Assembly (NCBI RefSeq): GCF_003614185.1
Contig: NZ_KZ987724.1
Span: 4,284,533 to 4,348,532, forward strand
Direction: 5' to 3'
DNA from: Paenibacillus aceti
GTDB lineage: Bacteria > Bacillota > Bacilli > Paenibacillales > Paenibacillaceae
Length of the DNA: 64,000 bases
Both the position numbers and the translations under genes were made by a program. Below, in pieces: positions 4,873-47,392 of the stretch. Position 1 is the stretch's first letter, and each line of letters starts with the position of its first letter. Below the pieces are notes generated by a model. It was given only the letters and a program-made list of their open reading frames with translations, did no database searches and was not told where the DNA came from.

Positions 4873-5535
4873 TTGAAATTTGGAAATAGAGGAATGTTCA
4901 TTACGCTGGAAGGCGGTGAAGGATCAGGCAAGACGACGATGATCGGGGAATTGGCGACGATCCTCGAGGAACAGGGAATCCCGTATATTACGACCCGTGA
5001 GCCTGGCGGCATTGAGATCGCGGAGAAAATTCGCGCGGTTATCCTTGATCCGCAGCATACCGCTATGGACCCACGCACCGAAGCGCTGCTCTATGCAGCA
5101 GCAAGACGGCAGCATCTGGCCGAGAAGGTGGAGCCTGCATTAGCTGAAGGTACCTTCGTCATCTGCGACCGATTTATCGACAGCAGCCTTGCTTATCAGG
5201 GGTATGCCAGAGGGCTGGGGATTGAGGAAGTATTGTCGATCAATCTGTTTGCGACCCAGGGGCGGATGCCGGATATTACGTTTTATATGGATATTGAGCC
5301 TAGACTGGGCTTGGCGCGGATATCCGCGACCCAGGGGCGTGAAGTGAATCGCCTCGATTTGGAGAAACTGTCCTTTCACGAGCAGGTTCGTCAGGGATAC
5401 CAGCAGGTAGCCGCCATGTATCCAGAGCGCATTCAAGTGATCGATGCCTCCGGCTCCAAGCGAGAGGTAGCGGATATCATGAAAGCTCAACTTCTGAGGG
5501 GTATAGAGGAATTTGGGCGTTCTTTGTCAAAATAA
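4873..5535 (+). CDS. tmk: Thymidylate kinase
   Basis: The 220-aa enzyme phosphorylates dTMP to dTDP for DNA synthesis. Visible motifs are the P-loop GEGSGKTT (15-22), the nucleoside-binding TTREPGG, the DRF motif in [13 protein letters not shown], and a Lys-free LID segment with Arg residues in QGREVNRLD. The TTG start at 4873 has AAGGCGGG about 7 nt upstream; the next ATG (4894) lacks a spaced ribosome binding site. It begins the conserved tmk-darA-yaaR-holB-ricT-yabA run. Confidence 0.95.
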
Positions 5536-13671: not shown

Positions 13672-13885
13672 AAACCAGTCTCGCTGAATCTCCGAGTATG
13701 GAGAACGGGGGAACCGATTGCGACAAACTACCAAAGTGAACACGGATTTCAATGTCGCGAAGGATTTCTTTGTAAGGGTCTATGGGGTGAATTCGAGGTC
13801 ATTGCGCCATGAGCGAATGAACTGAGAAAGGGCGACTCTCTACGTCCTAACCCGACAGCTAACCTCGTAGGCGTATCCAGAGAGG
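13672..13885 (+). promoter_or_regulatory. Cyclic di-AMP riboswitch (ydaO/yuaA type)
   Basis: The sequence carries the hallmarks of the ydaO class: CGCTGAATC near the 5' end, a hairpin then GGGGGAACC, GGGGTGAATTC in the middle, AAGGGCGAC, and the diagnostic 3' block CCGACAGCTAACCTCGTAGG closing with GCG. An extra stem, CGACA/TGTCG (about 13721-13756), is inserted as in B. subtilis versions. The class is an OFF switch that senses c-di-AMP, and a terminator follows at 13924. The downstream gene is a cell-wall (3D/G5) protein, a common ydaO target. Boundaries are approximate. Confidence 0.9.
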
Positions 13886-13923
13886 CAACAACTCGTGCAT
13901 CTATACATCATCGATTTAGTCCG

Positions 13924-40967: not shown

Positions 40968-41155
40968 AAATGTACAAAGCAGATTATATAAAGAGAAAAT
41001 AGGTCTTAAGTAGCGAATCTCTAGGTGGTATTATTCAAATAATGTACACAATTCTGGAATTAAATATCATGGAAATGTTTTGAAATTCATAGTAAGATTA
41101 TGATTGTCGTTTTGTCGAAATTTAGCAGGTGGGTCCACTAAACCTAATTAAATAA
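40968..41155. other. Leader region before the c-di-GMP riboswitch
   Basis: AT-rich, no gene seen. A perfect Spo0A box within TTTTGTCGAAA (TGTCGAA at 41113-41119) lies about 45 bp before the riboswitch. TATGAT at 41099-41104 is a possible -10 without a clear -35. If used, the box would sit over the start site, as at abrB. Confidence 0.4.
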
Positions 41156-41240
41156 TTTTTTGGCAAAGCTATCGAAAGGTAGTGACGCAAAGCTATAGGG
41201 ACTAATTCTTCTTTTGGGGGATATGTCAGCCAGTTGCTCT
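41156..41240 (+). promoter_or_regulatory. Cyclic di-GMP-I (GEMM) riboswitch
   Basis: The conserved GEMM-I core is clear: GGCAAAGC, a GAAA-capped hairpin (CTATC-GAAA-GGTAG), GACGCAAAGC, TAGGGACTAA, then after an extended P2 stem ATGTCAGCCAGTTGC, which closes with GCAA near 41164. A terminator follows at 41246, so it is a transcriptional switch. It lies 150 bp before a chemoreceptor gene. Confidence 0.93.
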
Positions 41241-41245
41241 TAAAT

Positions 41246-41285
41246 AAGGTAACCTATAGTTTGCTATGCGGTTATCTTTTTTTTT
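41246..41285 (+). terminator. Riboswitch expression-platform terminator
   Basis: AAGGTAACC (41246-41254) pairs with GGTTATCTT (41270-41278), with one G-T pair and an inner TATAG/CTATG stem, followed by a run of T to 41285. Confidence 0.85.
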
Positions 41286-41395
41286 GCCCAATTTTTAGTG
41301 GATGGCCATCGTGAAGGGAGATTACGGAAAAATAGATTACTGATCGGAAGTACAAACGATTCCAACTCACTATTGGGATGAAAAGGAGACTGAAA

Positions 41396-43147
41396 ATGAA
41401 GATTTCTGGTTTTATGAACCGTTTAAGTATTGTCACTAAGAATATGATGTTAACGAGTCTATCTGTTCTAATGACAGGTGTAATCTTGATTACAGCCAGC
41501 TACTATATTCAAGGCGCTGTTCTGACGAATCAATTGGAAGAGAACTCCCAGCGGGTTATGGAAGCCTGGAAGGATAAAATTAGTCCAGAGGATGCCAAGG
41601 CAGCGATGACGGATACCGATCGAAACTCGGAGCTACAGAAGAAACTGACGAAGTTGTTCGATGAATTATCGTCAACTCATCCTGAGGTGGCCCAGGGCTA
41701 TATTTTTGGCGCGAAGGTAGAGAATAACAGTACACAGATGATCGCTTTCTCGACGGATATCCTGGATATGTTCGAGGGGGAGAACCTGTTCCTGGGTGAT
41801 ATGCTGGGGCAGCCCGCTTACCATGTGAAGGGCGTCGAAGAAATGCTGAAGACGAAGCAGATTACGTTCACGAAGCCTTATAAAGATGATTATGGAATTT
41901 GGTTGACAGTGCTTTATCCTGTTCAGGATAAGAGCGGCCAGGTTTTCTCATACATAGGCATGGATTTCGATGCTAGCCTGATATTGACCGGCCAGAGGGA
42001 TTTGCTGAGATACACGGTACTCTCGCTTATCGTGATTCTGATCGTTATTTTGTCGTTCCAATTTTTCACGACCCGGAGAACCTTTGCACCGGTGAAGGAT
42101 CTAATGGAGGGTTTGGATAAGTTATCCAAGAACGATTTCAGCGTACGGCTTAAGACGGATGAGAGTGAGCTTGGTCAGGTCAATGCGATCTTTAATAAGA
42201 TGGCTCAGAATATGAATGATCTGGTGTCGACGATTAAGACAGTTTCAATCCAATCGGCGGATCAATCGAAGATATTATTCGATACGCTGGAGGAGAATCA
42301 TCAGACATCAGCGGCTATCGGCGCCAATATCGAGGAGATCTCGGAGAAGGCATCCCGTCAGAGCAAGGCGATCGCTGAGAGTGTTACTTCATTGGAGGAG
42401 ATTAATTCAGGCGTGGGCACGATTGCTAACAGCACCGCGGCTTTGTCGGATGTCTCCATGCAAATGAAGGATCGGTCGGAGGTCGGGCGAGATAATATCG
42501 GAGGCGTTATTGAACAAATGGACGCGATCCAACAGTCGGTGCAGCAATCCGTGGTATCGATTGAACAATTGCAGAAGCGCTCTGGACAAATCGAAGAGAT
42601 CGTTCGGGTGATTACACAGATTGCAGAGCAGACCCATCTGTTGTCATTGAACGCCAGCATTGAGGCAGCCCGGGCCGGTGAAGAGGGCCGTGGATTCGCT
42701 GTTGTAGCAAATCAAGTGAAGAAGCTGGCTGAAGAATCCGCCAAGTCAGCGGATCAAATCGCCGATCTTGTCCATTTCATACAGAAGGAAACCCTGACAG
42801 CTGTTGCTGCTATCAGTGAAGGGGATCGCAATGTTACGGAAGGTATCCAAATTGTGCAGAAGACAGGAGAACTCTTCGGTACAATTCTGGACGCGAACGA
42901 CGCGTTCACGAGCCAGATCCAGGAAGTATCTGCTGCGACTGAGGAAATGGTGGCAGAGACTGAACAGATCACCGTGACGATTAAGCAAATTGCCGAATAT
43001 GCCGAACGAAATGCAGTTATTTCTGGGCAAATCCGCGAGAGTGCCTCGGAACAGCGTGCTTCTGCAGATAACATTATGAATACCGCTGAGCATTTGAATG
43101 AAATCTCCGGGAGCTTGGAGAAATTGGTTAAGGGCCTGACCCTGTAA
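41396..43147 (+). CDS. Methyl-accepting chemotaxis protein
   Basis: The 583-aa receptor has an N-terminal transmembrane helix (MMLTSLSVLMTGVILITASY), a ~180-residue extracellular sensor resembling a Cache-type fold (FSTDILDMFEGENLFLGDML, YPVQDKSGQVFSYIGMDFD), a second helix (YTVLSLIVILIVILSFQFF), a HAMP region, and the signalling domain with the conserved hairpin tip NASIEAARAGEEGRGFAVVA. ATG 41396 has AAAGGAGA 6-7 nt upstream; the ATG 41378 overlaps it. Expression appears gated by the c-di-GMP riboswitch. The ligand is unknown. The gene is absent at this point in B. subtilis. Confidence 0.93.
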   Translation: MKISGFMNRLSIVTKNMMLTSLSVLMTGVILITASYYIQGAVLTNQLEENSQRVMEAWKDKISPEDAKAAMTDTDRNSELQKKLTKLFDELSSTHPEVAQGYIFGAKVENNSTQMIAFSTDILDMFEGENLFLGDMLGQPAYHVKGVEEMLKTKQITFTKPYKDDYGIWLTVLYPVQDKSGQVFSYIGMDFDASLILTGQRDLLRYTVLSLIVILIVILSFQFFTTRRTFAPVKDLMEGLDKLSKNDFSVRLKTDESELGQVNAIFNKMAQNMNDLVSTIKTVSIQSADQSKILFDTLEENHQTSAAIGANIEEISEKASRQSKAIAESVTSLEEINSGVGTIANSTAALSDVSMQMKDRSEVGRDNIGGVIEQMDAIQQSVQQSVVSIEQLQKRSGQIEEIVRVITQIAEQTHLLSLNASIEAARAGEEGRGFAVVANQVKKLAEESAKSADQIADLVHFIQKETLTAVAAISEGDRNVTEGIQIVQKTGELFGTILDANDAFTSQIQEVSAATEEMVAETEQITVTIKQIAEYAERNAVISGQIRESASEQRASADNIMNTAEHLNEISGSLEKLVKGLTL

Positions 43148-43197
43148 TATGGTGTTTTATTTAGATAAATAGAGAGAGAATTAAGGAGTGATCAGTT

Positions 43198-46100
43198 GTG
43201 AGCACCATACTGATGGATCAGAAAACCCGGGAATATTGGCTTAGAGAGCTACAGCCGCCATTATCCGGTTTTCATATTCATACGGACTACCCTAATCTGA
43301 CGATAGCTAGTGAGCTTAGAAGAATAACCTGTGCGCTGGACATGGACCCATCACAACTGGAACGAATCGCCGGGAGTGGCGACATTCAGACCTGGCTGCT
43401 AGCCTGTTACTACGTATTCCTGTATCGAATGAGTGGAGAGCAGGATCAAATCGTCGGGGTGAAGGGACCGGGCGGCAGATTGCTGCCCTTGCGCCTACAT
43501 CTTGAAGCGGAGATGTCCTTCAGCCATCTGCTATCGACTATAGCGGAGCGGCTCAATCCGTTATATGCAGCTAGTCTGCCTATCAAGGAGATAGAGGAGC
43601 TTATCTCGCAGTCCCCTGTGGTGCAGACGATATATGGCCAGGATGATACTTATGAATCAAGCCGTCTTAATTGGTATGTGCATAGTGAGAAGCAGCAGTG
43701 GGTGGTGGAGATCGCCTACGCGGGCCAGCTATTCAAGGAGAGCACGATTCGTAAGTTCGTCAGCCATTTTCAATGTATTGGAACGGCAGTATTGGCGGAT
43801 CCGGATATGGCTGTGGGTGACATCTCTATCATGACGGATGAGGATCGATCAGCCTATGAGACGCTTAATAATACGAGCAGACAGTGGGGCGTAGACTTAA
43901 CGATTACGTCCATGCTCAAGGGAGCGGTTGAGAGATTTTCTGACCGGATGGCGCTATCGTCGGCAGAGTGGAGCCTGACGTATGAGCAGCTAGACCGTCT
44001 GTCCAATCAGGTTGCCCACGCCTTGACCGACCAGGGGCTGGATAAGGGCAACTTCGTAGCGATATATATGGAGCGCAGCATGGAGGCTGTCGTCAGCATG
44101 CTTGGTGTCTTGAAGGCCGGTGGAACTTACATTCCGCTTGATCCAGAGCATCCGGATGACCGGAATCAGTACATCATCGAGGATACCCGCTCGCGGATCG
44201 TCCTGACCAAGGGAGCTTATATCACCAAGCTGCAGCCGCTTGTGGCTGATAGAGCAGAAGAGGTAAAGCTGCTTTGCTTCGATCTGGAGCAATTTTCTGC
44301 CTATTCGGCCCAGCCTTGCCAGGTGTCCATCGAGCCGGATGATGTGGCCTATACGATCTATACTTCCGGGACGACGGGAAGACCGAAGGGCGTGCTGATT
44401 CGCCATGTCGGTGTTGTGAATCTGTCGATGTCGACGATAGATCAACTGCAATTTTCAGAGAAAGATGTCATTCTCCAGTATTCTACCTTTAGCTTCGATG
44501 CATCGGTATTCGATATATTCAGCGCACTATGCTGCGGGGCGAGACTGCATTTATTGTCCAATGATCAGCGTTATTCGGTCGATAGCTTCACAGCAGCTAT
44601 ACAGGACACCGGAGCGACCCGGATCGGAATTCTGCCGACCGTCTTCTTCAATCAATTGTCCACTTATCTTACCGAGGAAGAGGCCCTGAAGTATCAAGTG
44701 ATCAAGAGCTTCGTTATAGGTGGAGAGGCGCTTCCTGGAGAGTCGGTGCGTAATCTACAGAGGAAGCTGCGGCATCAGCCGTTCATCGTCAATGCATATG
44801 GGCCGACAGAGGTAACAGTTGTTACAACGACCCATATGATCAAGGAGCCGATCCCTGAAGATCTGACCACGGTCAGCATCGGTCGGCCGATTGCCAATTA
44901 TGAGGTGCTGATCGTCAATGAGCAGGACCAGCTCTGTCCACTAAATGTGATGGGTGAGCTGTTGATCCATTCCGTCGGACTGGCTAAGGGTTATTTAAAT
45001 CTGCCTGACAAGACGGAGGAGGCCTTTATTGTTGATCCGTTGAATCCGGCTTCCGGCAAGAGATTCTATCGCTCTGGCGATCTGGTCCGGCTGCTGCAAG
45101 ACGGCGGTATTGAGTATATGGGCAGAAAGGATCTGCAGGTGAAGATCCGGGGATACCGGATTGAGATCGGAGAGATTGAGGAGAATCTGGCCAAGCATGA
45201 ACTGGTCAAGGACGTCGCGGTTATCGCCAAAGAGGATGAGAGCGGGGAGAAGGTACTGCTCGGCTTCTATACTTCGAAATCTGGCATAGAGATCAGCAAG
45301 CAGGAGCTGGCATCTTTCCTGAAGACTAAGGTTCCGGCATATATGGTTCCGGGACATTTCATCATGCTGAATTCGATGCCTTTATCGCCGACAGGGAAGA
45401 TCGACCGTAAACGGTTAGGAACCTATGATATTCCTGCGATAGTGGAGGAAGATTCCGAATATGTGGCGCCAAATACAGAGCTGGAGCGGGAAATCGCTGC
45501 GGCCTGGGAGAGATCGCTTCACCGCAGTCGTGTCGGTCTGCATGATAATTTCTTCGAAATTGGCGGGCATTCCTTGAAGATATTAGAGACGCTGGTGCTG
45601 CTGAAGCCGAGCTTTCCAAAGCTGAAAATCAATGATTTCTTCCTCTATCCAACGGTTCATTCTATGGCTGGACGTGTAGTAGAACTGGAGAATGAAACTG
45701 TAGAGGAGGATGCCTTTGCAGGTGTGGAAGAGATCCGGGATTTGGCAGAATATCCTCGTATGTTCGGCGGGGCGAATCTAAGGACTGCGGCTGCCCAGCA
45801 TCATATTCTATTGACCGGGGCTACCGGATATTTGGGTTCCTCACTGCTCTATCAATTGCTTCAGACCTCGGAGGCGACGATATATTGTCTAGTACGGGCA
45901 AAAGAGGGCGAAGACCCCTATCATCGTCTCGCGGAAGTTATGCAGGGCTACTACGGGCCGGAGATTGTCCGTGAAATGGAGGCACGGGTTGTTGTCGTCT
46001 GCGGCGATTTGCAGCAGCCCGACCTGGGCTTGAGTGCGCAGGATGCAACACTGCTTAGACAGCAGCTTGACTCCATTATCCATTGTGGAGCCGAGGTGAA

Positions 46101-46914
46101 GCACTTTGGCGCGGCGGATTATTTTGCTAAGGTGAACGTTGAGAGCACGGACCGTCTGCTTGATCTGGCGCGCGGGAAGCAGGTGCGTTTCCATTACGTA
46201 TCCACGCTGGGGATTCCTGAGGATCTGGCCTTCCTGGGACGGTGGGAGCCGTTTATCGAAGGATGTGGCTATGATGCGGTTGCTACCGAGAATGTATATA
46301 CGAACAGTAAGCTCGAAGCGGAGAAGCTGGTGATTCAGGCCTGTGAGGAAGAGGGAGTGGCTGTCTCGGTATATCGGGTAGGTAATCTGTCCTGTTACTC
46401 CACTACGGGCGTATTCCAGAAGAACATCGACAATAATGCGTTCTATCGGATGCTGAAGGCGATGCTGCTGCTTGGCAAGGCGCCGAGCGTGCACTGGGAG
46501 GTAGACTTCACCCCTGTGGACTATGCAGGCGCGTCTATATCGGCCTTGGCTCTGCAGGAGAAGAGTGTCGGCAGACTGTTCCATATCTGCAATCCGGCGC
46601 AAATCGCTTATACCGCGATGGTCGATATTCTCCGTGAGTACGGCTACTCTATCGATCTGCTGGAATGGCCTGCCTATGAGGCGTGGCTGCTCGATCCGAA
46701 CGAGCCGAAGGATCAGGCTGGCATGGAGCTGGCGATGGCGCAGCTGGAGGGAGATGGAGCGAAGAACTCGATCTACCGCTTCGCCTGCCCTCAGACGAAT
46801 GAATTCCTGGCGGATACGAATGTCACCTGTCATGTTCCCGACGGCGAATTTTTCAGACGCATGATAGATTATGCGGTGCGCATCGGCTATTTCCCTGCTC
46901 CTCAAGCACAGTAA
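43198..46914 (+). CDS. One-module NRPS-like protein (truncated C, A, T, terminal reductase)
   Basis: The 1238-aa protein has four parts. Residues 1 to ~215 resemble only the C-terminal lobe of a condensation domain and lack the catalytic HHxxxDG. An adenylation domain follows (~225-740) with YTSGTTGRPKGV, FDASVF, NAYGPTE and YRSGDLVR. A carrier domain (GGHSLKI) has its phosphopantetheine serine at S792. A thioester-reductase domain (~865-1238) has LLTGATGYLGSS and YTNSK (Y1034, K1038). It should load an amino acid, or similar acid, and release it as an aldehyde or alcohol. By eye the specificity positions read D-A-F-G-V-G-A-V-V, giving no sure substrate. GTG follows AAGGAG by 9 nt. It lies 50 bp after the chemoreceptor with no terminator between. 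Confidence 0.9.
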   Translation: MSTILMDQKTREYWLRELQPPLSGFHIHTDYPNLTIASELRRITCALDMDPSQLERIAGSGDIQTWLLACYYVFLYRMSGEQDQIVGVKGPGGRLLPLRLHLEAEMSFSHLLSTIAERLNPLYAASLPIKEIEELISQSPVVQTIYGQDDTYESSRLNWYVHSEKQQWVVEIAYAGQLFKESTIRKFVSHFQCIGTAVLADPDMAVGDISIMTDEDRSAYETLNNTSRQWGVDLTITSMLKGAVERFSDRMALSSAEWSLTYEQLDRLSNQVAHALTDQGLDKGNFVAIYMERSMEAVVSMLGVLKAGGTYIPLDPEHPDDRNQYIIEDTRSRIVLTKGAYITKLQPLVADRAEEVKLLCFDLEQFSAYSAQPCQVSIEPDDVAYTIYTSGTTGRPKGVLIRHVGVVNLSMSTIDQLQFSEKDVILQYSTFSFDASVFDIFSALCCGARLHLLSNDQRYSVDSFTAAIQDTGATRIGILPTVFFNQLSTYLTEEEALKYQVIKSFVIGGEALPGESVRNLQRKLRHQPFIVNAYGPTEVTVVTTTHMIKEPIPEDLTTVSIGRPIANYEVLIVNEQDQLCPLNVMGELLIHSVGLAKGYLNLPDKTEEAFIVDPLNPASGKRFYRSGDLVRLLQDGGIEYMGRKDLQVKIRGYRIEIGEIEENLAKHELVKDVAVIAKEDESGEKVLLGFYTSKSGIEISKQELASFLKTKVPAYMVPGHFIMLNSMPLSPTGKIDRKRLGTYDIPAIVEEDSEYVAPNTELEREIAAAWERSLHRSRVGLHDNFFEIGGHSLKILETLVLLKPSFPKLKINDFFLYPTVHSMAGRVVELENETVEEDAFAGVEEIRDLAEYPRMFGGANLRTAAAQHHILLTGATGYLGSSLLYQLLQTSEATIYCLVRAKEGEDPYHRLAEVMQGYYGPEIVREMEARVVVVCGDLQQPDLGLSAQDATLLRQQLDSIIHCGAEVKHFGAADYFAKVNVESTDRLLDLARGKQVRFHYVSTLGIPEDLAFLGRWEPFIEGCGYDAVATENVYTNSKLEAEKLVIQACEEEGVAVSVYRVGNLSCYSTTGVFQKNIDNNAFYRMLKAMLLLGKAPSVHWEVDFTPVDYAGASISALALQEKSVGRLFHICNPAQIAYTAMVDILREYGYSIDLLEWPAYEAWLLDPNEPKDQAGMELAMAQLEGDGAKNSIYRFACPQTNEFLADTNVTCHVPDGEFFRRMIDYAVRIGYFPAPQAQ

Positions 46915-46930
46915 TTCAGTTTCAATTAAA

Positions 46931-46979
46931 AAAGGGCGTGCCCCGAAGTCACCCAGACTTTGTGGGCAACCCCTTTTTG
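46931..46979 (+). terminator. Terminator after the NRPS-like gene
   Basis: An A-rich start, AAAGGG with GTGCCC, pairs with GGGCA and CCCCTTT, followed by TTTTT. The loop is large. Confidence 0.7.
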
Positions 46980-47006
46980 TTATTTAGCGGCTGCACGAAT
47001 TCCAAA

Positions 47007-47185
47007 ACTGCAAATCTGCAGGCTTTATCGCCCGAACTCACCTGTTCTTGGTAAATTCCTGTAAATCTGCAGGCTTTTCTGCTGTTTTCTGCGAAATCAG
47101 GTCCGAGTTGGGGAAATACCTGCATTATCGCAGGAATTTGCCATTATGGGTCGCTGTAGTTGCGAAATTCCTGCAAAAATGCAGG
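47007..47185. repeat. Third cluster of CCTGCA-N4-TGCAGG palindromes
   Basis: Units are at 47007-47022 (first base differs, AATC), 47058-47073 (CCTGTA-AATC-TGCAGG), 47119-47134 (CCTGCA-TTAT-CGCAGG) and 47170-47185 (perfect, AAAA). Spacing is again 51, 61 and 51 bp. The order of flanks is reversed relative to the other two clusters, so this is an inverted copy of the block. Confidence 0.88.
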
Positions 47186-47194
47186 TTTGAAGAG

Positions 47195-47392
47195 TCGGAC
47201 TTTTAACGAAACAAGGTATCGCTATTTGCGCCCCAAAGGGGCTTTGCAATTTCTAACGAAACTGGGGGAGTGCTATCTGTGCAAATCAGGGGTCTAAATT
47301 GCGATTTTCCCTCGAATAACGATATGGTGTTTCCTTAGATTTTATTTATTACTGTTTTTGGGCAAATAGCGCTCTGGAGTTTCGTTAGAGGA
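47195..47392. repeat. TTTCGTTAGA/AACGAAAC repeat family
   Basis: Several imperfect copies occur in both orientations: AACGAAACAAGGTATCGCTA near 47203, TCTAACGAAACT near 47252, GGTGTTTCCTTAGA near 47324, and AAATAGCGCTCTGGAGTTTC then GTTAGAG near 47363. The same core is seen near 356-386 and at 18329-18354. No gene is seen here. Confidence 0.6.

What the first reader, a model, noticed from the sequence alone, without database searches (positions are those of the whole stretch)
41080..46979. c-di-GMP riboswitch controlling a chemoreceptor plus NRPS-reductase operon
A GEMM-I riboswitch with a terminator sits ahead of a chemoreceptor gene. A one-module NRPS with terminal reductase starts 50 bp later with no terminator between; the next terminator is at 46931. 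So c-di-GMP could set levels of both a sensor and an enzyme that releases a small aldehyde or alcohol. A perfect Spo0A box upstream (41113) would tie it to the sporulation choice too. One idea is that the enzyme makes a diffusible signal and the chemoreceptor senses it, but no data support that link.
Basis: partly seen in the sequence, partly recalled or inferred. Interest (0 to 1): 0.85.

Follow-up and report, generated by a model that had tools for sequence, protein, structure and literature searches.

The report
c-di-GMP-gated chemoreceptor and small-molecule synthase pair
A soil bacterium keeps a chemotaxis receptor and a small enzyme that should turn an amino acid into a diffusible aldehyde side by side behind an RNA switch for the messenger c-di-GMP, and because this pairing recurs in distant relatives and unrelated genome positions, the cell may steer by a molecule it makes itself.

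Summary
A c-di-GMP-I riboswitch (66.4 bits) with its own terminator precedes a chemoreceptor gene; a one-module reductase NRPS (partial C, A, T, R) starts 50 bp later with no terminator between. Of 393 genomes of the order, 131 hold this enzyme; 126 have a receptor with the same outer domain directly upstream, one more (G404) a truncated one. The receptor is also there in 80 of 80 named loci, in 28 flanking contexts, and in 16 of 20 single-module loci outside the order. None of 20 hand-picked other NRPS genes has one upstream on its strand. The riboswitch heads 29 of 60 pairs examined in the order and 9 of 16 outside. Best reading: an operon switched off by high c-di-GMP, encoding an amino-aldehyde (probably pyrazine) synthase and a receptor that likely senses the product. 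The operon is well supported; the OFF direction is inferred from base pairing, and product sensing from linkage alone. The Spo0A-like box is missing from most relatives yet commoner in these leaders than chance (8 of 31); sporulation control stays open.

The parts
41068..41098 (+). promoter-like block (ATGG ... TAGTAAnAT) upstream of the aptamer; candidate transcription start region
   Evidence: pattern found in the window and in 12 of the 18 other GEMM-I loci tested; not in L041, L042, L050, L051, L052, L054; identity as a promoter is inference
41113..41119 (+). TGTCGAA, Spo0A-box-like 7-mer (consensus recalled); role open
   Evidence: in 8 of 31 leaders of the order, shuffle mean 0.43, 0 of 200 shuffle sets reach 8; absent from 23
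41152..41241 (+). c-di-GMP-I (GEMM-I) riboswitch aptamer
   Evidence: RF01051 66.4 bits, gathering 35
41191..41199 (+). aptamer segment AGCUAUAGG, antiterminator partner of 41253-41261
   Evidence: duplex of aptamer with terminator arm -12.9 kcal/mol, 1 of 200 shuffled arms as good; MFE of 41186-41270 forms it
41246..41285 (+). intrinsic terminator of the riboswitch (expression platform)
   Evidence: hairpin of -12 kcal/mol or better in 30 of 31 leaders vs 2 of 93 shuffles
41378..43147 (+). chemoreceptor (MCP) gene, 589 aa
   Evidence: PF00672, PF00015
41507..41992 (+). extracytoplasmic PAS/Cache-like ligand-binding domain (about aa 44-205)
43183..43188 (+). ribosome-binding site AAGGAG of the NRPS gene
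   Evidence: read from the sequence
43198..46914 (+). one-module NRPS with terminal reductase, 1238 aa
43219..43848 (+). C-terminal lobe of a condensation domain only (N-terminal part of the profile not matched)
   Evidence: PF00668 profile 192-452 of 456
43924..45399 (+). adenylation domain; pocket code DAFGVGAVVK (hand alignment to recalled GrsA positions)
   Evidence: PF00501, PF13193; code
45490..45675 (+). thiolation (carrier) domain, GGHSL motif intact
   Evidence: PF00550
45802..46890 (+). terminal thioester reductase domain, GATGYLG and YxxxK intact
   Evidence: TIGR01746 222.1 bits, cut-off 213.35; PF07993
46929..46978 (+). intrinsic terminator ending the operon
   Evidence: -28.7 kcal/mol, z -6.2

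Best explanation
A tightly conserved three-part cassette found in many genome positions. (1) A c-di-GMP-I riboswitch lets RNA polymerase through when c-di-GMP is low, the motile state, and terminates transcription when it is high. (2) The one transcript encodes a chemoreceptor with a PAS/Cache-like outer domain and an A-T-R enzyme. (3) The enzyme loads one hydrophobic alpha-amino acid onto its carrier domain and its reductase releases the amino aldehyde, which should dimerise and oxidise to a 2,5-disubstituted pyrazine or be reduced to the alcohol. (4) The receptor senses this self-made product (or its direct precursor or derivative) and feeds it to CheA, so cells move relative to their own kin's chemical. 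Shown by computation: parts, order, conservation of linkage, terminator. Inferred: ligand binding and OFF direction, product, and step 4.
For: Pairing: 126 of 131 enzyme loci in 393 genomes of the order by coordinates, plus G404 with an MCP frame matching only residues 118-584. 80 of 80 named loci (78, L133 and L141), including Bacillus badius, Metabacillus fastidiosus, Lysinibacillus and Clostridium thermopalmarium. 16 of 20 single-module loci outside the order. 28 distinct flanking contexts in the 80, by crude ORF calls. Control: 0 of 20 hand-picked other NRPS genes has a same-strand upstream receptor in the 9-16.5 kb fetched; the own genome has 14 MCPs. Of the 150 listed receptor-domain matches, 149 are in genomes that hold the enzyme; the exception is G030. 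Riboswitch: directly ahead of the receptor in 29 of 60 pairs in the order and 9 of 16 outside, plus M. fastidiosus; a hairpin plus T run follows in 41 of 41 GEMM-I leaders tested. Enzyme: motifs intact; the nearest characterised kind, ATRed of Xenorhabdus indica, makes a pyrazine from phenylalanine (PMC7586950, part 1 of 3 read). A PPTase-like gene directly follows the enzyme in 8 of 80 named loci (4 of the 8 checked in Pfam). G024/L047: no receptor-domain match in the genome, and the enzyme shows a changed amino-binding Asp and reductase Tyr. CheA and GGDEF genes are present.
Against: No experiment. Linkage shows a shared role, not that the ligand is the product. The riboswitch is absent from 31 of 60 pairs in the order, so c-di-GMP control is common but not essential. 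G030 keeps riboswitch and receptor without the enzyme. More distant relatives of the receptor domain (E 1e-6 to about 1e-29) occur in at least 50 further genomes without the enzyme (181 genomes against 131). In 11 of 152 aligned receptors the outer domain is under 28% identical to the window's although the pair is kept. Four enzyme genomes in the order and 4 of 20 loci outside lack the receptor. A distance-matrix test of receptor-enzyme co-evolution did not discriminate: the signalling domain correlated with the pocket at least as well as the ligand domain. The window's pocket code is not assigned to an amino acid. Antiterminator pairing beats shuffled arms at 5% in only 12 of 41 leaders.
Confidence: 0.5

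Rival explanations
1. Same operon and same c-di-GMP OFF switch, but the receptor senses an outside cue (a nutrient, host or competitor molecule) and the enzyme's product is an effector used in the same motile phase, for example a volatile antimicrobial pyrazine. They share timing and niche, not a ligand.
For: Riboswitch and co-transcription evidence applies equally. A Paenibacillus isolate makes an antimicrobial 2,5-bis(1-methylethyl)-pyrazine, increased when it meets a competitor (PMC5481530, passages; its gene was not named there). G030 keeps the receptor without the enzyme.
Against: Keeping a receptor with the same outer domain next to the enzyme in 28 contexts and several families, also in the 31 of 60 order-level pairs without the riboswitch, is more than shared timing usually needs.
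Confidence: 0.3
2. The receptor guards the enzyme: it senses the substrate amino acid or the reactive aldehyde so that cells move to precursor or away from self-made toxicity. The product is a metabolic or redox by-product rather than a signal.
For: Cache-type domains often bind small metabolites (general knowledge); structural matches include CitA-like domains.
Against: The pocket codes vary widely (45 codes in 157 sequences), so receptors would have to be tuned to several ordinary amino acids; why such receptors would need linkage to an enzyme is unclear (inference).
Confidence: 0.12
3. Historical hitchhiking: the two genes were joined once, moved together by transfer, and have no functional tie.
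For: Common descent explains part of the counts (32 of 80 named loci share one context).
Against: 127 of 131, 80 of 80 and 16 of 20 against 0 of 20 controls, across 28 contexts and enzyme identity down to about 40%.
Confidence: 0.04
4. The riboswitch controls only the receptor, and the enzyme has its own promoter inside the receptor gene or the 50 bp gap.
For: Promoter position cannot be settled by sequence, and the consensus scan is no better than chance (15 hits found in 12 kb, 13.1 expected).
Against: No + strand sigma-70-like hit between 41071 and 44315. Gap of 50 bp without terminator; short gaps in relatives (-1 to 345 nt); riboswitch directly before the enzyme where the receptor is lost (L047).
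Confidence: 0.1

Closest known systems
ATRed minimal NRPS of Xenorhabdus indica (PMC7586950, part 1 of 3 read)
   Same: One module A-T-R; release of an amino aldehyde by a terminal reductase; product there is a phenylalanine-derived pyrazine
   Different: Here a C-terminal C-domain lobe precedes A, the pocket code is unassigned, and the gene sits in an operon with a chemoreceptor under a c-di-GMP riboswitch. The neighbours of ATRed were not examined
Pvf signalling (PvfC, Pseudomonas entomophila; PMC10194917, passages)
   Same: An NRPS gene cluster makes diffusible signals (that PvfC is A-T-R and its product amino-acid-derived is recalled)
   Different: Pvf adds an N-oxygenase (PvfB) and two more genes and controls transcription; the paper leaves receptor and signal path to future studies. 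Here a candidate receptor is encoded next door and no N-oxygenase is in the operon
c-di-GMP-I (GEMM-I) riboswitch, RF01051
   Same: Aptamer well above the gathering score with a terminator as expression platform
   Different: The target pair, receptor plus A-T-R enzyme, was not found described in the ten searches made
Autoinducer-2 chemoreceptors PctA and TlpQ (PMC7584622, abstract)
   Same: Chemoreceptor with a Cache-type domain that senses a bacterial signal; the abstract also names KinD, whose sensor domain is among the structural matches here
   Different: dCache; that its synthase LuxS is not linked to the receptor is recalled. Here a shorter PAS/Cache-like domain and a linked synthase
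Aureusimine synthetase AusA (NF047350)
   Same: Best-scoring NCBIfam hit for the enzyme, 641 bits (cut-off 2500); terminal reductase NRPS
   Different: AusA is two-module and makes dipeptide pyrazinones (recalled; model length 2373); this enzyme has one module and is far under the cut-off

Membership tests
c-di-GMP-I riboswitch (RF01051) | covariance-model score above the gathering threshold | tested here: met
   66.4 vs 35 bits
c-di-GMP-I riboswitch (RF01051) | expression platform (terminator or start-site masking) directly downstream | tested here: met
   terminator 41246-41285; hairpin plus T run in 41 of 41 leaders tested
c-di-GMP-I riboswitch (RF01051) | binds c-di-GMP and changes expression | not testable with these tools
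   needs in-line probing and reporters
Minimal A-T-R reductase NRPS (ATRed kind) | A, T and R domains in one chain, no complete C domain | tested here: met
   PF00501, PF00550, TIGR01746 over its cut-off; only profile positions 192-452 of 456 of the C domain matched
Minimal A-T-R reductase NRPS (ATRed kind) | intact carrier serine and YxxxK / GxxGxxG reductase motifs | tested here: met
   GGHSL, YTNSK, GATGYLG
Minimal A-T-R reductase NRPS (ATRed kind) | releases amino aldehyde that forms a pyrazine | not testable with these tools
   needs enzyme assay or metabolomics
Methyl-accepting chemotaxis protein | HAMP and MCP signalling domain | tested here: met
   PF00672 33 bits (cut-off 25), PF00015 142.3 bits (cut-off 34.6)
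PAS/Cache-like extracytoplasmic sensor (KinD, CitA, WalK kind) | fold of the outer domain | tested here: inconclusive
Pvf-type signalling operon | N-oxygenase PvfB and PvfA/PvfD beside the NRPS | tested here: not met
   ORFs around the enzyme here are spoIIE, the receptor, then a terminator and VWA (yabS-like) and kinase (yabT-like) genes
Spo0A-controlled gene | Spo0A box in the control region, conserved | tested here: inconclusive
   7-mer in 8 of 31 leaders (shuffle mean 0.43, 0 of 200 reach 8) but absent from 23 of 31

The most novel reading that the evidence does not exclude
A widespread family of private chemical dialects in motile Bacilli: each lineage's A-T-R synthase makes its own amino-acid-derived aldehyde or pyrazine (pocket codes differ between lineages: 45 codes in 157 sequences) and the adjacent chemoreceptor reads it, giving genetically linked self-recognition chemotaxis, in many lineages switched on only when c-di-GMP is low. 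This would be a chemotaxis counterpart of quorum-sensing synthase-receptor pairs.
Probability: 0.4. Interest if true: 0.9.

Novelty: new variant of a known kind. Interest (0 to 1): 0.76.

Why it matters
Bacteria are known to swim towards nutrients and a few shared signals. Here a signal-like synthase and a chemoreceptor are hard-wired together in many Bacilli and often gated by c-di-GMP, the motility/biofilm switch. If the receptor reads the product, it defines a new kind of kin-directed movement and gives a ligand-receptor pair that can be tested in one or two knockouts. It also offers candidate genes for pyrazines reported from Paenibacillus (valine feeding of P. polymyxa, PMC6955855; Paenibacillus sp. 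AD87, PMC5481530); the passages I read did not name their genes, and supplements were not read.

Tried and rejected
Spo0A control: my first view, that the box is incidental, did not survive a recount. The 7-mer is in 8 of 31 leaders of the order (0 of 200 shuffle sets reach that) and 2 of 10 outside (2 of 200), but absent from 23 of 31, so it is left open. A chance pattern or misannotation of the riboswitch: rejected. Receptor-enzyme co-evolution by partial Mantel test on 86 non-redundant pairs of 151: not discriminating, because after controls the signalling domain correlated with the pocket at r 0.19 and the ligand domain at 0.15. Assigning the window's pocket code to an amino acid: not possible; the code positions come from a hand alignment to GrsA recalled from memory, and the resemblance of DAWTTAVVCK/AK to the GrsA phenylalanine code is recalled too. 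Whole-receptor model: the outer domain is good, the cytoplasmic helices poor (pLDDT about 56-77, pTM 0.40), so only aa 44-205 was interpreted; many long-helix rows of the fold search are unrelated coiled coils and were ignored.

Literature: the ten searches (open-licence PMC only) gave no listing that I recognised as describing this operon or pair. Subscription papers are not covered. Passages of PMC6878767 and PMC11999294 were also looked at and gave nothing on it.

Known limits of counts: the receptor-domain list was cut after 150 matches (weakest listed E 1.3e-34). The named loci and the G genomes overlap in species, so the counts are not independent; so do the 157 enzymes, and 45 codes are not 45 substrates. 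One search kept the best 80 of 186. Loci at contig ends can look like unique contexts. Of 23 class-level genomes outside the order with the enzyme, 20 with single-module frames were fetched; the other three (two-module frames) are L242, L243 and L249 of the control set. The 20-gene control was hand-picked from other NRPS genes. One search dropped L126 and L145 (short enzyme frames) and the receptor of L089 (short frame). The shuffle control for terminators covers the 31 leaders of the order, not the ten others.
Full report
What is there. The window holds, after spoIIE, a c-di-GMP-I aptamer at 41152-41241 (66.4 bits), a terminator at 41246-41285, a 589-aa chemoreceptor (41378-43147), a 50-bp gap with a ribosome-binding site, a 1238-aa NRPS with partial C, A, T and R domains (43198-46914), and a strong terminator at about 46929-46978. 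Then come VWA and kinase genes (yabS/yabT-like), tilS and ftsH (the last names by eye).

How the switch should work. The aptamer segment AGCUAUAGG (41191-41199) can pair with CCUAUAGUU (41253-41261) in the 5' arm of the terminator. The duplex is -12.9 kcal/mol, matched by 1 of 200 shuffled arms, and the minimum-energy fold of 41186-41270 contains it. Forming the ligand-bound aptamer would free the terminator, so c-di-GMP should turn the operon off. This direction is inferred. In 31 GEMM-I leaders of the order, 30 have a hairpin of -12 kcal/mol or better followed by a T run, against 2 of 93 dinucleotide shuffles. Over 41 leaders including ten from outside the order, all 41 have one of -8 kcal/mol or better; at that looser cut 10 of 93 shuffles of the 31 also do. 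The antiterminator pairing beats shuffled arms at the 5% level in 12 of 41, so that detail is well supported only near the window's clade and in a few others.

Is it one operon. No terminator was found in the gap. In 17 riboswitch-bearing pairs including the window, a hairpin-plus-T scan from 60 nt before to 60 nt after the gap found one hit, in L065, which lies inside the enzyme gene. In genome G024 the receptor gene is gone and the riboswitch sits directly before the enzyme (L047). A promoter inside the receptor gene cannot be excluded.

The pair is conserved. I searched 393 genomes of the order with the enzyme (131 hits at 1e-200) and with the receptor's outer part. By coordinates 126 of 131 enzymes have the receptor domain directly upstream on the same strand; G404 has an MCP there whose frame matches only residues 118-584, giving 127. 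The four without are G024, G067, G074 and G078. Of the 150 receptor-domain matches listed, 126 are adjacent to an enzyme, 23 are second copies in genomes that also hold the enzyme, and one (G030) is in a genome without it. That G030 locus still has the riboswitch and receptor, followed directly by yabS. Weaker relatives of the domain occur in at least 50 further genomes without the enzyme (181 genomes at 1e-6).

Named relatives. A scan of GTDB contigs with an alignment of reductase domains (A1) gave 80 loci, the best of 186. A receptor is directly upstream in all 80: 78, L133 and L141. Most are Paenibacillus, Fontibacillus or Cohnella; also Gorillibacterium, Bacillus badius (L132), Metabacillus fastidiosus (L136, with GEMM-I at 5406-5493), Clostridium thermopalmarium (L141) and Lysinibacillus (L169, L186, outer domain only weakly similar). 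L126 is a broken pair. With PPTase links left out, the 80 fall into 28 groups of shared flanking genes. My own riboswitch model finds GEMM-I just ahead of the receptor in 21 of the 80. In 8 of the 80 a PPTase-like gene follows the enzyme directly; the eight form one blastp cluster and four of them were checked against Pfam.

Outside the order. In 398 genomes of the class, 46 had the enzyme. Of 23 outside the order, 20 with one-module frames were fetched; 16 have a receptor directly upstream, and the exceptions are L217 and L229-L231. Nine of the 16 also have a c-di-GMP-I-class riboswitch directly ahead of the receptor (L221 scores best as RF03167).

Controls. Twenty hand-picked other NRPS genes (other one-module genes, AusA-like and two-module ones) have no same-strand upstream receptor in the stretch fetched. 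Three two-module ones (L242, L243, L249), 42-45% identical to this enzyme, have a receptor on the other strand beyond their start, which may be a rearranged form of the same partnership. The own genome has 14 MCP hits, one CheA hit, seven GGDEF hits, one other NRPS cluster and a Sfp-sized PPTase elsewhere.

How common is the riboswitch. Pairs examined in the order: 60 (window, 26, one of them broken, 20, 13). It is directly ahead of the receptor in 1 + 17 + 7 + 4 = 29. It was not found at the P. pabuli/P. polymyxa-type pairs examined. Five unlinked second receptor copies (L090-L094) have none.

The Spo0A-like box. TGTCGAA lies 39 nt before the aptamer here. It is in 8 of 31 leaders of the order, five of them at about this distance, against a shuffle mean of 0.43 (0 of 200 reach 8), and in 2 of 10 leaders outside (2 of 200); 23 of 31 lack it. 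Sporulation control in some lineages is therefore possible but not a general feature.

The enzyme. The carrier serine, the NAD(P) motif and YxxxK are present in the 29 enzymes except that L047 has lost the Tyr of YxxxK. The pocket code is DAFGVGAVVK here, DA[YF]-type in close kin, and varied elsewhere: 45 codes among 157 sequences, the first Asp kept in all but L047. A DAWTTAVV[CA]K group resembles the recalled phenylalanine code. The nearest studied enzyme kind, ATRed, gives a pyrazine. Pyrazines are reported for P. polymyxa on valine feeding (PMC6955855, passages) and for Paenibacillus sp. AD87 (PMC5481530, passages). That this family makes them is a proposal.

The receptor. The outer domain (aa 44-205) is predicted with good confidence as a PAS/Cache-like domain; tied structural matches include KinD, CitA and WalK sensor domains. 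In 141 of 152 aligned receptors its identity to the window is 28% or more, with Y108, T119, Q145, Y168, D170, G173, W175, P181 and D196 nearly invariant among those 141; these are candidates for the pocket or core.

Judgement. Observation certain. Common regulation by c-di-GMP likely. Amino aldehyde synthesis likely. Sensing of the product is the simplest reason for such persistent pairing, but it rests on linkage only; I put it near one half. I found no description of this pair in ten open-licence full-text searches.

Noticed in passing
13672-13889: A c-di-AMP (ydaO) riboswitch, 76.4 bits; its target was not examined.
   Followed up: no
46990-47200: Several short palindromes with TGCAGG/CCTGCA-like arms repeat behind the NRPS terminator (read by eye).
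   Followed up: no
own genome loci L001, L005, L002, L004, L003, L007: Six further c-di-GMP-I riboswitches: a tandem pair before a transglutaminase-like gene with a PAS-MCP-like gene upstream, a tandem pair before a masked (N) stretch, one before another MCP and one before a VWA adhesin-like gene (gene names by eye, the MCP of L003 also).
   Followed up: partly
L242, L243, L249: Two-module NRPS genes 42-45% identical to this enzyme have an MCP on the opposite strand beyond their start.
   Followed up: partly
L090-L094 and 18 other places listed: Second, unlinked copies of the receptor occur, among the 150 listed matches, only in genomes that also hold the enzyme; the five fetched have no c-di-GMP-I riboswitch.
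   Followed up: partly
L047 (G024): Receptor lost; enzyme frame open but with the amino-binding Asp read as Gly and the Tyr of the reductase YxxxK as Cys: possible decay of the enzyme after loss of its partner.
   Followed up: partly
41113-41119 and leaders L038, L039, L050, L068, L069, L079, L080: Spo0A-box-like 7-mers are commoner in these riboswitch leaders than in shuffles, at varying distances.
   Followed up: partly
L212 6619-6709 (+) and 5978-6064 (-); L131 20777-20862: Additional c-di-GMP-I riboswitches near the pair, one divergent from the receptor's own.
   Followed up: no
L141 14256-14315: Fluoride riboswitch in the Clostridium thermopalmarium locus.
   Followed up: no
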